Assembly: GCF_030758755.1 (NCBI RefSeq)
Contig: NZ_CP132387.1
Location: 2,533,001-2,597,000, forward strand
Direction: 5' to 3'
From: Bartonella apihabitans
Lineage (GTDB): Bacteria; Pseudomonadota; Alphaproteobacteria; Rhizobiales; Rhizobiaceae
Length of the DNA: 64,000 nt
Shown here: positions 7,743-59,537 of the stretch, piece after piece
Layout: each line of letters starts with the position of its first letter
How positions within the stretch are numbered: position 1 is the first letter of the stretch
The notes under the pieces: model-generated
Told to the model about the DNA's origin: nothing
Seen by the model: only the letters and a program-made list of their open reading frames with translations
Databases searched by the model: none
Translations under genes and position numbers: made by a program

Positions 7743-8776
7743 TCATGCAATTTTTGCGCGTTCTTTTAGCGGTTGCCACCACCATTTATTGTCAAGATAC
7801 CACTGGACTGTTTTCTTCAAACCTGTATCAAAAGTTTCCTGCGGTTTCCAATGAAGTTCTGTCATGATTTTCGTTGGATCAATCGCATAACGCCTGTCAT
7901 GTCCGGCCCGATCTTTAACGAATGTAATGAGTTCCCGATAGGATTTTCCATTGGCACGCGGCTTGAGTACATCAAGAATGCCACAGATAGATTCGACAAC
8001 CTGAAGATTGGTTCGTTCATTATGTCCGCCAACATTATAGCTCTCGCCTATTTTGCCATGACATACAATTGTTTCCAAAGCTCGCGCGTGGTCATCGACA
8101 TAAAGCCAATCGCGAATATTCTTTCCCTCGCCGTAAATAGGCAGTGGCTTTTCATCAAGCGCAGAGAGAATAACAAGCGGGATAAGTTTCTCGGGAAAAT
8201 GGTATGGGCCATAATTATTTGAACAATTGGAAATAACAGTTGGCAACCCATAGGTATGATACCAAGCGCGCACCAAATGATCCGACGAGGCTTTCGAGGC
8301 AGAATAGGGAGAAGACGGGTTATACGGTGTTTGCTCGGTAAAAATACCGCTGTCAAACGGCAGATCTCCAAACACTTCATCGGTAGAGATATGGTGAAAG
8401 CGGAATGTCTTTTGTTTGGTAGGGGCCAATTTTTCAAAATAACGGCGCGCTGCTTCTAACAAACGAAAAGTGCCTACAATATTTGTCTCAATGAACGCCG
8501 ATGGGCGAGAATCGATCGATCTACATGACTTTCGGCGGCAAGATGCATAATGGCGTCTATTTGTTCGTTTTCCAAAATTTCAAAAACAGCATCACTGTCA
8601 CAGATATCCAATTGATAGAAATGATAGTTTTGTTTACCAACCAATGTTTTTAAAGATTGAAGATTTCCTGCATAGGTCAGCTTATCAATATTAAAAACAT
8701 CATATCCCTTATTAACAAGATGTCGGCACAATGCCGACCCGATAAAACCTGCACCGCCAGTCACAAGAATTTTCAC
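7743..8776 (-). CDS. rfbB: dTDP-glucose 4,6-dehydratase, reading frame interrupted
   Basis: Second enzyme of dTDP-L-rhamnose synthesis (NAD-dependent 4,6-dehydration of dTDP-glucose). The N-terminal part holds the Rossmann motif 'VTGGAGFIGS' and 'LAAESHVDRSI'; then the frame is lost near 8510-8521. The downstream part resumes with 'FIETNIVGTF' in another frame and carries 'STDEVFGD' and the YxxxK motif 'YSASKASSD'. The DNA at the break reads GATCGATCGATT directly followed by CTCGCC. Restoring one more GATT unit gives an uninterrupted ~345-residue protein with the expected 'DRSIDS.PSAF' sequence, close to the usual length. The start is the GTG at 8776, overlapping the rfbC stop (GTGA). The gene is either slipped or mis-sequenced. 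Confidence 0.85.
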
Positions 8777-9345
8777 TTTGTCATCTCCGCAAAATCGAAG
8801 AGCTCGGCATCTTTCAAAAATGGTGCATTTTTGTCTTTTTCCGAAAGCTCGACATGGGCAAGGTCGATCGGCCAACTGATCGCTATGTCAGGATCATCAA
8901 AACGAATAGAACGGTCGCATTCGGGAGCATAATAGTCTGTTACTTTATAGACAAATTCACAATTGTCCTCAAGCGTTAGAAAACCGTGTGCAAACCCCGC
9001 AGGAATATAGAATTCGTTCCATTTATCAGGTGAAAGTTCAACACTCGTCCATTTGAGAAAAGTTGGTGAACCGCGTCTTATATCAACTGCAACGTCAAAT
9101 ACACGGCCTCGTGTTACACGAACGAGTTTTGTTTGCGCGTGTGGAGTAAGTTGGTAATGCAATCCTCTTAAAGTACCGGCTTTTGCGGAATAAGACTGGT
9201 TGTCTTGAACAAAAATATCCTTGATACCGTGAGCCGAAAAATCTTTAGCATTATAAGTTTCAGAAAAAAAACCGCGATTATCTCCGAATTTTTTAGGTTG
9301 AATTATAAAAACATCAGGAATAACCGTTTTATTGACTTCAATCAT
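8773..9345 (-). CDS. rfbC: dTDP-4-dehydrorhamnose 3,5-epimerase
   Basis: A 190-residue cupin-type epimerase, third step of dTDP-L-rhamnose synthesis. Recognisable are 'DNRGFFSE' (residues 22-29), the catalytic His in 'LRGLHYQ' (His63), 'VRVTRGRVFDVAVDIR' and 'FYIPAGFAHGF'. I place the start at the ATG at 9345 rather than an in-frame upstream codon at 9363, because MIEV fits the family and an ACGGAG ribosome site precedes it. The start overlaps the end of rfbA by eight bases, and its stop overlaps the GTG of rfbB, so the three genes are translationally coupled. Confidence 0.93.
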   Translation of the reverse strand: MIEVNKTVIPDVFIIQPKKFGDNRGFFSETYNAKDFSAHGIKDIFVQDNQSYSAKAGTLRGLHYQLTPHAQTKLVRVTRGRVFDVAVDIRRGSPTFLKWTSVELSPDKWNEFYIPAGFAHGFLTLEDNCEFVYKVTDYYAPECDRSIRFDDPDIAISWPIDLAHVELSEKDKNAPFLKDAELFDFAEMTK

Positions 9346-10219
9346 TACCGATCTCCGTAACAAGACGTTTTAAATACTCTGCATAGCCGGTTTTGCCTAG
9401 CTGATCAGCCCGTTGTAAAACCTGATCTGCTGTCAGATAACCGGCGTTATAAGCGATTTCTTCTGGACACATCACCTTGATGCCTTGTCGTTTTTCAATC
9501 GCTCTAACATAAGACGATGCGTCATGAAGGCTATCATGAGTGCCGGTGTCAAGCCATGCATATCCACGCCCAAGTCTGATGACTTGTAAACGTTTTCCAG
9601 CAAGATATAAGCTATTGATATCGGTTATCTCGAGTTCTCCACGAGCAGAAGGTTTTAAATCTTGTGCAAATGAAACGACATCATTGTCATAAAAATAAAG
9701 TCCGGTAACAGCCCAATTGGATCGTGGTTTTTCCGGCTTTTCAACAAGTGATTCTGCCAGGCCTGTTTGCTTATCAAAACTTACAACGCCATAACGCTCG
9801 GGATCATCGACACGATAGGCAAAGACGGTTGCGCCGTTTTTAAATGATTTCGCTTTTTCAAGCTGGTTTGCAAGACCGTGACCGAAAAAAATATTATCGC
9901 CAAGTACAAGTGACACATGGCTATCGCCAATGAACTCTTTGCCAATTATAAAGGCTTCGGCAAGGCCATTCGGATGGGCTTGTTCGGCATAGGAAAAATT
10001 AATTCCGTAAGCGCTGCCATCGCCCAGCAACTGATGAAACAACGGGAGGTCACGCGGCGTCGATATAATAAGAATATCACGGATTCCTGCCAGCATAAGA
10101 ACGCCCAGCGGATAATAGATCATCGGCTTATCATAGATTGGCAAAAGTTGCTTTGAAATTCCCAAAGTTGCCGGATAGAGTCTCGTTCCGCTCCCTCCAG
10201 CAAGAATAATCCCCTTCAT
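9338..10219 (-). CDS. rfbA: glucose-1-phosphate thymidylyltransferase
   Basis: A 293-residue nucleotidyltransferase that makes dTDP-glucose from dTTP and glucose-1-phosphate, the committed step to dTDP-rhamnose. The signature 'LAGGSGTRLYPATLG' occupies residues 6-20, followed by 'KQLLPIYDKPMIYYPL' and the metal-binding 'LVLGDNIFFG'. The length matches the RmlA short-chain family. The start at 10219 is preferred over an upstream in-frame ATG at 10255 because of the GAGG site eight bases before it and the family N-terminus. It is the first gene of the seven-gene minus-strand operon and is divergent from ahcY. Confidence 0.95.
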   Translation of the reverse strand: MKGIILAGGSGTRLYPATLGISKQLLPIYDKPMIYYPLGVLMLAGIRDILIISTPRDLPLFHQLLGDGSAYGINFSYAEQAHPNGLAEAFIIGKEFIGDSHVSLVLGDNIFFGHGLANQLEKAKSFKNGATVFAYRVDDPERYGVVSFDKQTGLAESLVEKPEKPRSNWAVTGLYFYDNDVVSFAQDLKPSARGELEITDINSLYLAGKRLQVIRLGRGYAWLDTGTHDSLHDASSYVRAIEKRQGIKVMCPEEIAYNAGYLTADQVLQRADQLGKTGYAEYLKRLVTEIGND

Positions 10220-10523
10220 GCCAATAGCCTCATTTGAATAGTTTTTTGAAAACAAGCAAAATGCTATTTAAGTGTTTCACGAAATATATCCACAAAGAGT
10301 TCGAGAAAAAATCAAGTCACAAATTCCTATATCTATTGTAACAAAGTTTATCATAAAACCGATAAAGGCGCATTATATAACCAAACATAGGCGTAATTTT
10401 GGCGTCTGTTTTTTAATTTGCTGTCAAAATTACAACCGGTATAAAGATCTCTTTATATCCTGTTGCACCATTGTGTGACATCTGTTAAATCACCGGAAGC
10501 TAAAAATCTTCAAGGAGTGCATA
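10220..10523. promoter_or_regulatory. divergent intergenic region between rfbA and ahcY
   Basis: About 300 AT-rich bases must hold the promoters of the rhamnose operon (minus) and of ahcY (plus). A small self-complementary hairpin (ATAAAG/CTTTAT) is at 10441-10456 and an AAGGAG ribosome site for ahcY at 10512-10517. I looked for a SAM- or SAH-type riboswitch ahead of ahcY and could not match one by eye. No credible gene is present. Confidence 0.45.
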
Positions 10524-58810: not shown

Positions 58811-58956
58811 GATAATATCCTTTTCTCTGTTCCGGCAAAGCAGGCATAATATAACGTTATTTCAGAATTAAAATCACTTGGTTATAAAAAACAGTGCAGC
58901 GGTTTTAACGTTTACGAAATTCTACCGTCTTTTCAGGTCTTTTCCTGAATTGAGCC

Positions 58957-58992
58957 TTGTCTGCTCCATTGAATTTGTCTGCTCCATTGAAT
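58957..58992 (+). repeat. perfect 18-bp tandem duplication
   Basis: TTGTCTGCTCCATTGAAT occurs twice back to back (58957-58974 and 58975-58992), 45 bases beyond the stop of the small membrane protein gene. Confidence 0.95.
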
Positions 58993-59037
58993 AAGGATCA
59001 TACCGTTTTTTAGATAAAGCGGTAAAAGCCGGCAATA

Positions 59038-59537
59038 TTATTGCTCGACCGGTTTATCAAGTCTGAAACCGGTCGCAAGAATCCAGCAAACCCAGCCAAC
59101 AAATATCCACTGGATGAAACCATAAGAGAGCCTGCGGAGAATATCTTCACTTGTTATAGGTTCCATACCGGGCTGGGAAACAACGAACTGGGACATCACA
59201 ATATAGAATATTTCCACGCATAAACTGACCAGAATGGTGCGCCAAATGGATGCTGAAAGTGAAAGCCCCAGTCCTCGTGAGGGGGGAAGAGAACAAAATA
59301 CACCGCTTAAAAATACAGATGGCATGTAATAGGAATAGCCGGATAAAAATCTCGAACGCACGTCATTATTAAAAACATCAAAAATTTCTACGAGCAGATT
59401 TGTGCCGCCAACCCAATGATGAAGAAGATAAACGCCGGCAATTGTCTGGACGGCAGGCCAAGCAACAGAAAAATTGTAATAATACCGAAGCCCCGCATGG
59501 GGTAGCTATAAAGGGGTGTTTTATTATGATTTGTCAT
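59038..59537 (-). CDS. unrecognised membrane protein, frame broken
   Basis: The repaired protein has about 166 residues and four hydrophobic segments. The first part is 'MTNHNKTPLYSYPMRGFGIITIF'; one T missing in a T5 run (plus-strand A-run at 59469-59473) shifts the frame. The second part continues 'SVAWPAVQTIAGVYLLHHWVGGTNLLVEIFDVFNNDVRSRFLSGYS' and ends 'FRLDKPVEQ'. The family is unknown. It lies 33 bases after the next gene upstream on the same strand and may be co-transcribed with it. Confidence 0.6.

What the first reader, a model, noticed from the sequence alone, without database searches (positions are those of the whole stretch)
8510..59537. About thirteen frame-breaking indels in eleven genes, several normally essential
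rfbB, divL (two), lysS, alkB, chvG, EIIA, truA (two), fmt, the autotransporter, the COG3904-like gene and the membrane protein at 59038 each read as two or more fragments. In each case a small indel restores a full-length family member, with no other decay. lysS and fmt are expected to be essential. Nine of the events fit loss of one or two bases from short homopolymers. This argues for consensus error, while addA, addB, tamB and ahcY remain intact.
Basis: partly seen in the sequence, partly recalled or inferred. Interest (0 to 1): 0.7.

Follow-up and report, generated by a model that had tools for sequence, protein, structure and literature searches.

The report
Sequencing errors mimic broken genes
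The broken genes in this honey-bee gut bacterium are almost certainly not real: they look like misreadings by the sequencing machine, clustered at the short DNA words that the bacterium's own defence enzyme probably tags.

Summary
In detail: all 13 frame breaks are in the window, and all are absent from a same-species genome, G073. Contig lengths identify the source as Bartonella apihabitans K-FP28, whose paper describes a nanopore-only assembly with 206 frame-shifted pseudogenes. The breaks cluster at GGNCC. It lies within 8 bases of 9 of the 13 in at least one of three relatives, and of 7 of 13 in G073 alone. Over five blocks it is at 45 of 83, against 2.2% background, and it ranks first of 2,688 motifs in held-out blocks. 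Private indels of G021 and G007 are at GGNCC in 0 of 28. K-FP28 carries a C5-methyltransferase beside an EcoO109I-family restriction enzyme; G073, G021 and G007 lack both. Inner-C-to-T changes at GGNCC are in excess, and 20 of 38 are nonsynonymous. Most likely, basecalls fail at methylated GGNCC and depth does not cure it. A plasmid BanI-type system (GGYRCC) may explain two or three further sites; this is weak. alkB and fmt are unassigned. Methylation itself was not shown; no reads were available.

The parts
7743..8875 (-). rfbB/rmlB (dTDP-glucose 4,6-dehydratase) read as two pieces, 8474-8875 and 7743-8462; break near 8507, at a GGNCC site in G073 and G021
   Evidence: ORFs; Pfam; intact 377-aa orthologue identified by NCBIfam in G021; breaks
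11976..14536 (+). divL-like PAS sensor histidine kinase in three pieces; breaks near 13090 and 13476, both at GGNCC in three relatives
26680..28342 (-). lysS (class I lysyl-tRNA synthetase), carboxyl end out of frame; break near 26832, GGNCC in three relatives
31555..32167 (-). alkB-like 2OG-Fe(II) oxygenase in two overlapping pieces; break near 31960, no GGNCC or GGYRCC within 12 bases
36570..38356 (+). chvG-like sensor histidine kinase, carboxyl end out of frame; break near 38135, GGNCC in three relatives
39008..39416 (+). PTS EIIA (mannose/fructose family), amino end out of frame; break near 39082, GGNCC in three relatives
44562..45303 (-). truA in two main pieces; breaks near 44906 (GGYRCC in three relatives) and 44936 (GGNCC in G021 and G007, GGYRCC in G073 and G021)
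45305..46236 (-). fmt, carboxyl end out of frame; break near 45455, neither motif within 12 bases
48283..50741 (-). autotransporter-domain protein in two pieces, 49215-50741 and 48283-49110; break near 49408, GGYRCC in three relatives
53680..54381 (+).

Best explanation
The frame breaks are systematic consensus errors of a nanopore-only assembly, caused mainly by DNA methylation. B. apihabitans K-FP28 most likely methylates the inner cytosine of GGNCC with a C5-methyltransferase encoded at about 570 kb of its chromosome, next to an EcoO109I-family restriction enzyme. The methyl groups lie on both strands of a palindrome and disturb the pore signal, so the basecaller makes the same kinds of mistake there in many reads: one- or two-base gains and losses, and T in place of the methylated C. 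Depth (1,433x in the paper) does not remove such shared errors, and where they fall in a gene they look like a frameshift. Shown here: the indels are specific to K-FP28, they concentrate at GGNCC, the methyltransferase/restriction pair is present in K-FP28 and was not found in G073, G021 or G007, and the paper's methods name nanopore reads and Flye for this strain with no polishing step. Inferred: that the enzyme is active, that its target is GGNCC, and that the wrong calls are in the reads.
For: Identity and method: G000 contigs of 2,702,659 and 5,266 bases and a total of 2,739,485 equal the paper's three replicons for K-FP28; Table 1 gives 206 frame-shifted of 246 pseudogenes, against 1-57 frame-shifted in the other 11 strains. 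Specificity to K-FP28: 83 private frame-breaking indels in 66 of 338 ORFs, against 11 in 11 of 345 (G021) and 17 in 11 of 342 (G007) (p = 3e-17 per ORF); same species, 27 against 1. Motif: GGNCC at 45 of 83, background 2.16%, p = 3e-52, first of 2,688 motifs; held-out blocks D and E alone 19 of 33, p = 1e-23; relatives' own indels 0 of 28. Per conserved GGNCC site: 43 of 456 carry a private indel in K-FP28, 0 of 322 in G021, 0 of 336 in G007; control words in K-FP28: CCNGG 3 of 467, GCNGC 9 of 1689, CGNCG 5 of 1173, GANTC 2 of 577. Enzymes: C5-methyltransferase beside PF14511 RE_EcoO109I. No C5-methyltransferase or PF14511 match in G073, G021 or G007. EcoO109I cuts RGGNCCY (PMC7337904, passages). 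Chemistry: inner C-to-T at GGNCC 38 in 348 sites, 20 nonsynonymous, against 8 in 286 and 5 in 298, none nonsynonymous, in G021 and G007. Strain-specific, motif-linked, methylation-related C/T nanopore errors with R10.4.1 flow cells are published (PMC11389150, abstract passage and one section); similar for Kit 14 data in PMC11610573 (passages).
Against: GGNCC does not account for all events: 38 of 83 are elsewhere, and 25 genes are net-shifted without GGNCC, more than the 11 and 5 net-shifted genes of G021 and G007. With G073 alone as reference, only 7 of the 13 window events have GGNCC within 8 bases. EcoO109I reads RGGNCCY, but the errors are not confined to it: RGGNCCY 6 of 53, YGGNCCR 6 of 149. 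Most GGNCC substitutions in K-FP28 are synonymous (52 of 70 in three blocks), so many are real. A genome with a similar enzyme pair, G081, also has fewer GGNCC per kb (1.15, against 1.07 in K-FP28 and 1.33-1.36 in the others), so part of the deficit may be real avoidance. The cited nanopore papers describe base ambiguity; I saw no passage on indels in them. No reads were examined.
Confidence: 0.92

Rival explanations
1. Plain nanopore homopolymer error: the basecaller drops or adds bases in short runs, without any role for methylation.
For: Runs of exactly 3 are over-represented at the 83 sites (30 of 83, background 17.5%), though GGNCC sites flanked by G or C make such runs. A5/T5 words show a mild excess (116 of 3741 against 138 of 7270).
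Against: Run lengths of 4 or more are found at 15 of 83 sites, against about 13% background. GGNCC ranks above every plain 3-, 4- and 5-mer in the scan. The other 10 strains of the same paper assembled without short reads have 1-57 frame-shifted pseudogenes.
Confidence: 0.05
2. Real pseudogenes: K-FP28 is a lineage in early gene decay and the frame breaks are in its DNA.
For: The relatives G021 and G007 also have some private frame-breaking indels (11 and 17), so real ones occur. A real minority among the 38 non-GGNCC events is likely.
Against: lysS and fmt are among the broken genes, and all 11 genes are open in G073 of the same species. 27 against 1 events since the split from G073. Gene decay predicts no link with GGNCC, yet 19 of those 27 have it within 8 bases in G073 or in the window itself.
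Confidence: 0.02
3. Real indels made by the restriction enzyme: K-FP28 cuts its own under-methylated GGNCC sites and repairs them with small gains and losses.
For: Indels cluster at the presumed recognition site of a resident enzyme.
Against: No Ku homologue (PF02735) was found in the genome, although other end-joining routes were not tested. It would have to break lysS. G081, which carries a similar pair, has GGNCC at only 2 of 45 private frame-breaking indels, against 18 of 32 in K-FP28 in the same blocks; but its methyltransferase match contains two stops and its sequencing method was not seen.
Confidence: 0.01

Closest known systems
Methylation-induced nanopore consensus errors (PMC11389150, PMC11610573)
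   Same: Current nanopore chemistry (R10.4.1 / Kit 14), strain-specific, conserved motif at error sites, C/T confusion
   Different: Here the motif (GGNCC) comes from comparing an assembly with relatives, without reads; indels dominate the visible damage; a candidate enzyme is named. I saw passages and one section of these papers, not their whole text
EcoO109I restriction-modification system (RGGNCCY)
   Same: Restriction enzyme above the Pfam PF14511 cut-off (E 3.8e-27), weak sequence match to EcoO109I in the PDB (1wtd, E 4.6e-4), C5-methyltransferase alongside
   Different: Error footprint is GGNCC, not limited to RGGNCCY; the methyltransferase has an N-terminal MerR-type DNA-binding domain; 4 of the 5 relatives of the restriction enzyme found on plasmids are labelled PmeII family
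SagCOH1II of group B Streptococcus (5mC at GGNCC; PMC13343189, passages)
   Same: A GGNCC 5mC system detected with nanopore data
   Different: No sequence comparison was made here
BanI restriction-modification system (GGYRCC)
   Same: Plasmid-borne PF24447 RE_BanI (E 1.4e-109) beside a C5-methyltransferase on the 5,266-base contig; BanI site GGYRCC per PMC7337904 passage
   Different: Its link to errors is weak: 5 of 38 non-GGNCC events (p = 8e-5 uncorrected) and 4 of 273 sites against 1 of 456 (p = 0.07)

Membership tests
Methylation-induced nanopore consensus error | Assembly made from native nanopore reads | tested here: met
   Replicon lengths match K-FP28; methods name R10.4.1, Guppy sup, Flye; no polishing named for this strain
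Methylation-induced nanopore consensus error | Errors concentrate at one sequence motif | tested here: met
   GGNCC 45 of 83, background 2.16%; held-out 19 of 33
Methylation-induced nanopore consensus error | Strain carries a methyltransferase for that motif | tested here: inconclusive
   C5-methyltransferase present beside an EcoO109I-family enzyme; its target was not measured
Methylation-induced nanopore consensus error | Close relatives without the methyltransferase lack the errors | tested here: met
   G073, G021, G007: no C5-methyltransferase; private indels at GGNCC 0 of 5, 0 of 11, 0 of 17
Methylation-induced nanopore consensus error | Strand-biased wrong calls in reads, gone after PCR amplification | not testable with these tools
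   No reads available
EcoO109I-type restriction-modification system | Restriction enzyme of PF14511 with adjacent C5-methyltransferase | tested here: met
   L118: PF14511 E 3.8e-27 above cut-off, PF00145 E 3.2e-91
EcoO109I-type restriction-modification system | Specificity RGGNCCY | tested here: inconclusive
   Error footprint also at sites outside RGGNCCY (6 of 149 YGGNCCR); cleavage not tested
BanI-type restriction-modification system | PF24447 enzyme with adjacent C5-methyltransferase | tested here: met
   L110
Genuine pseudogenes | Break confirmed by independent data or shared with a close strain | tested here: not met
   None of the 13 is shared with G073; independent reads not available

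The most novel reading that the evidence does not exclude
The indels are real and self-inflicted: the resident GGNCC restriction enzyme cuts the cell's own under-methylated sites, and error-prone repair leaves small gains and losses in a mixed population, so that restriction-modification acts as a site-directed mutator of its host. A milder and much likelier novelty (about 0.6; interest about 0.35) is that this EcoO109I-family system reads GGNCC with the inner C methylated, and that its specificity can be read from assembly errors alone.
Probability: 0.01. Interest if true: 0.85.

Novelty: not a real feature. Interest (0 to 1): 0.3.

Why it matters
The genome is public, and its many false pseudogenes (206 reported as frame-shifted) would suggest gene decay in a bee symbiont. 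Knowing the cause tells users which calls to distrust (GGNCC sites) and how to check them. It also shows that a motif scan of frame breaks against relatives can point to the restriction-modification system behind them without raw signal.

Tried and rejected
HPr break near 39440: rejected, shared with G073.

Homopolymer slippage as main cause: rejected on run lengths and motif ranking, but a mild A5/T5 excess remains.

CcrM-type GANTC methylation as cause: no excess (2 of 577).

Restriction avoidance or deamination as the whole story of the GGNCC substitutions: not clear. Most are synonymous, hence partly real, while inner C-to-T changes are half nonsynonymous.

Residual motif after removing GGNCC and GGYRCC (33 events): nothing convincing, best p = 2e-3 among 2,688 motifs. 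Before removing GGYRCC, GGSNSCC was best (6 of 38, p = 1e-6) and I have no explanation for it.

First versions of the per-site indel counts (and the last table) used K-FP28 itself as a reference for the control genomes and so charged its errors to them; replaced. One search dropped overlapping alignments; replaced. One search was a first, window-only version of the same test (GGNCC indels 6 of 50 in the window against 0 of 38 and 0 of 37).

Stretches L127-L144 were mostly not syntenic and were dropped. G014 and G006 (72-82% and 65-81% identical) were aligned once and not used further. Blocks B-E all lie at 2.16-2.70 Mb, where relatives align; they are not a random sample of the chromosome.

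Filters behind the counts: ORFs of at least 150 aa chosen mechanically, at least 90% aligned, indels within 6 bases of an ORF end left out, and 'private' meaning the same length and kind against two relatives within 8 bases.

Papers: PMC10868161, part 1 of 2 of the text with Table 1, and passages; PMC11389150, passages and section 19; PMC11610573, PMC13343189, PMC10305163, PMC7337904, passages only; others, search listings only. A search for 'K-FP28' or 'Bartonella apihabitans' gave 13 papers; only PMC10868161 holds 'K-FP28', and it has no word beginning with 'methyl' in its main text. 'nanopore' with 'GGNCC' gave 6 papers, two of which I opened for passages.
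Full report
What was checked. I aligned the window with the same region of two relatives, G021 (94.2% identical) and G007 (93.2%), and later with G073, which the genome tool labels same species (97.9% over the window). All 13 were found within 12 bases of the stated positions. All 11 genes are open at full length in G073 and in G021, and in G007 all 10 that align there. Gene names were checked by Pfam and NCBIfam on the pieces or on the intact orthologues; divL, chvG and alkB rest on domain make-up, and the COG3904-like gene and the 59-kb gene had no match.

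Where the sequence comes from. The window lies in a genome of three contigs with 2,739,485 bases in all; the chromosome has 2,702,659 and the smallest contig 5,266. These equal the replicons of Bartonella apihabitans K-FP28 in PMC10868161 (2,702,659 + 31,560 + 5,266). That paper describes R10.4.1 nanopore reads, Guppy sup basecalling and Flye assembly at 1,433x. Polishing is named only for another strain, L. apis K-MP7. Its Table 1 gives 206 frame-shifted of 246 pseudogenes for K-FP28 and 1 to 57 frame-shifted for the other 11 strains. No explanation is given in the part I saw.

How many, and where. In five blocks (the window and 4 x 100 kb at 2.16-2.70 Mb) K-FP28 has 83 private frame-breaking indels in 66 of 338 ORFs (363 kb). 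G021 has 11 in 11 of 345 and G007 has 17 in 11 of 342. Net-shifted genes are 59, 11 and 5. My share of net-shifted ORFs (59 of 338) is higher than the paper's 206 among 2,482 genes. I attribute this to longer ORFs and stricter counting, but did not test it. Against G073 with G021 as outgroup, 27 indels fall on the K-FP28 branch and 1 on the G073 branch.

The motif. I noticed GGNCC by eye in the window. A scan of 1,664 motifs in blocks A-C put it first (26 of 50, background 2.06%, p = 1e-30). Blocks D and E, fetched afterwards, put it first of 2,688 again (19 of 33, p = 1e-23). Overall it is 45 of 83. Private indels of G021 and G007 have it in 0 of 28 and of G073 in 0 of 5. Counted per site, 43 of 456 conserved GGNCC words carry a private frame-breaking indel in K-FP28, and 0 of 322 and 0 of 336 in the relatives. 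Four control words in K-FP28 give 19 of 3906 together. For the 13 events of the finding, GGNCC lies within 8 bases in at least one of three relatives for 9. In G073 alone it does so for 7, with GGYRCC at 3 more.

The enzymes. K-FP28 has four C5-methyltransferase genes. One, at about 570 kb, stands beside a PF14511 enzyme of the EcoO109I family. EcoO109I cuts RGGNCCY and its relative AvaII GGWCC (PMC7337904, passages). Another, on the 5.3-kb plasmid, stands beside a PF24447 BanI enzyme. G073, G021 and G007 have no C5-methyltransferase and no PF14511 enzyme. PF14511 was found in none of the 40 other genomes searched. Among 71 genus genomes the 570-kb methyltransferase has one near-full-length relative, in G081 (75% identical), which also has the PF14511 enzyme. 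G081's contig length equals that of a metaWRAP MAG record. It has GGNCC at 2 of 45 private frame-breaking indels, against 18 of 32 in K-FP28 for the same blocks. That suggests the enzyme pair alone does not produce indels. But G081 is only 88-90% identical to the others, two stops lie inside its methyltransferase match, and I did not see how it was sequenced.

The substitutions. At conserved GGNCC sites in ORFs, K-FP28 has 38 changes of the inner C to T (either strand) in 348 sites, 20 of them nonsynonymous. G021 has 8 in 286 and G007 has 5 in 298, none nonsynonymous. Elsewhere in K-FP28 908 of 5222 private changes are nonsynonymous (three blocks; p = 9e-7). This fits misreading of 5-methylcytosine as T at the inner position. 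Against a pure artefact, most of all GGNCC substitutions are synonymous (52 of 70). GGNCC density is also lower in G081 (1.15 per kb), as in K-FP28 (1.07), than in G073, G021 and G007 (1.33-1.36). So real avoidance or real deamination may add to the effect.

What remains. 38 of 83 indels are not at GGNCC. GGYRCC is at 5 of these (p = 8e-5, uncorrected), but per site it is weak (4 of 273 against 1 of 456, p = 0.07). No motif explains the last 33. Some will be real differences, some ordinary homopolymer error. alkB and fmt belong to this group.

Verdict. The frame breaks are very probably not in the organism. Such errors are a known kind (PMC11389150, PMC11610573, parts seen). I saw the link to GGNCC and to this enzyme pair in K-FP28 in none of the listings or passages that the searches gave.

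Noticed in passing
L110 (G000:C1, 5,266-base plasmid): Complete-looking BanI-type restriction-modification pair on a tiny plasmid; a near-identity search of PLSDB gave only one weak Bartonella match
   Followed up: partly
L121 and L123 (G000:C3 about 1.388 and 1.210 Mb): Two further dcm-like C5-methyltransferases; no restriction enzyme was recognised among the two neighbouring ORFs scanned
   Followed up: partly
window 3363-7000: Stretch of low G+C (0.375 at 4001-8000) beside the rhamnose genes that has no long alignment to G021 or G007: probably a strain-variable sugar locus
   Followed up: no
window 53951 and 53969: Two frame changes that cancel, both at GGNCC: a short stretch of wrong residues in an otherwise open gene, invisible to pseudogene counts
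   Followed up: yes
L005 (G014): The pckA match in this MAG has one TAA inside
   Followed up: no
L118 1462-2763: Methyltransferase with an N-terminal MerR-type DNA-binding domain, perhaps self-regulating
   Followed up: no
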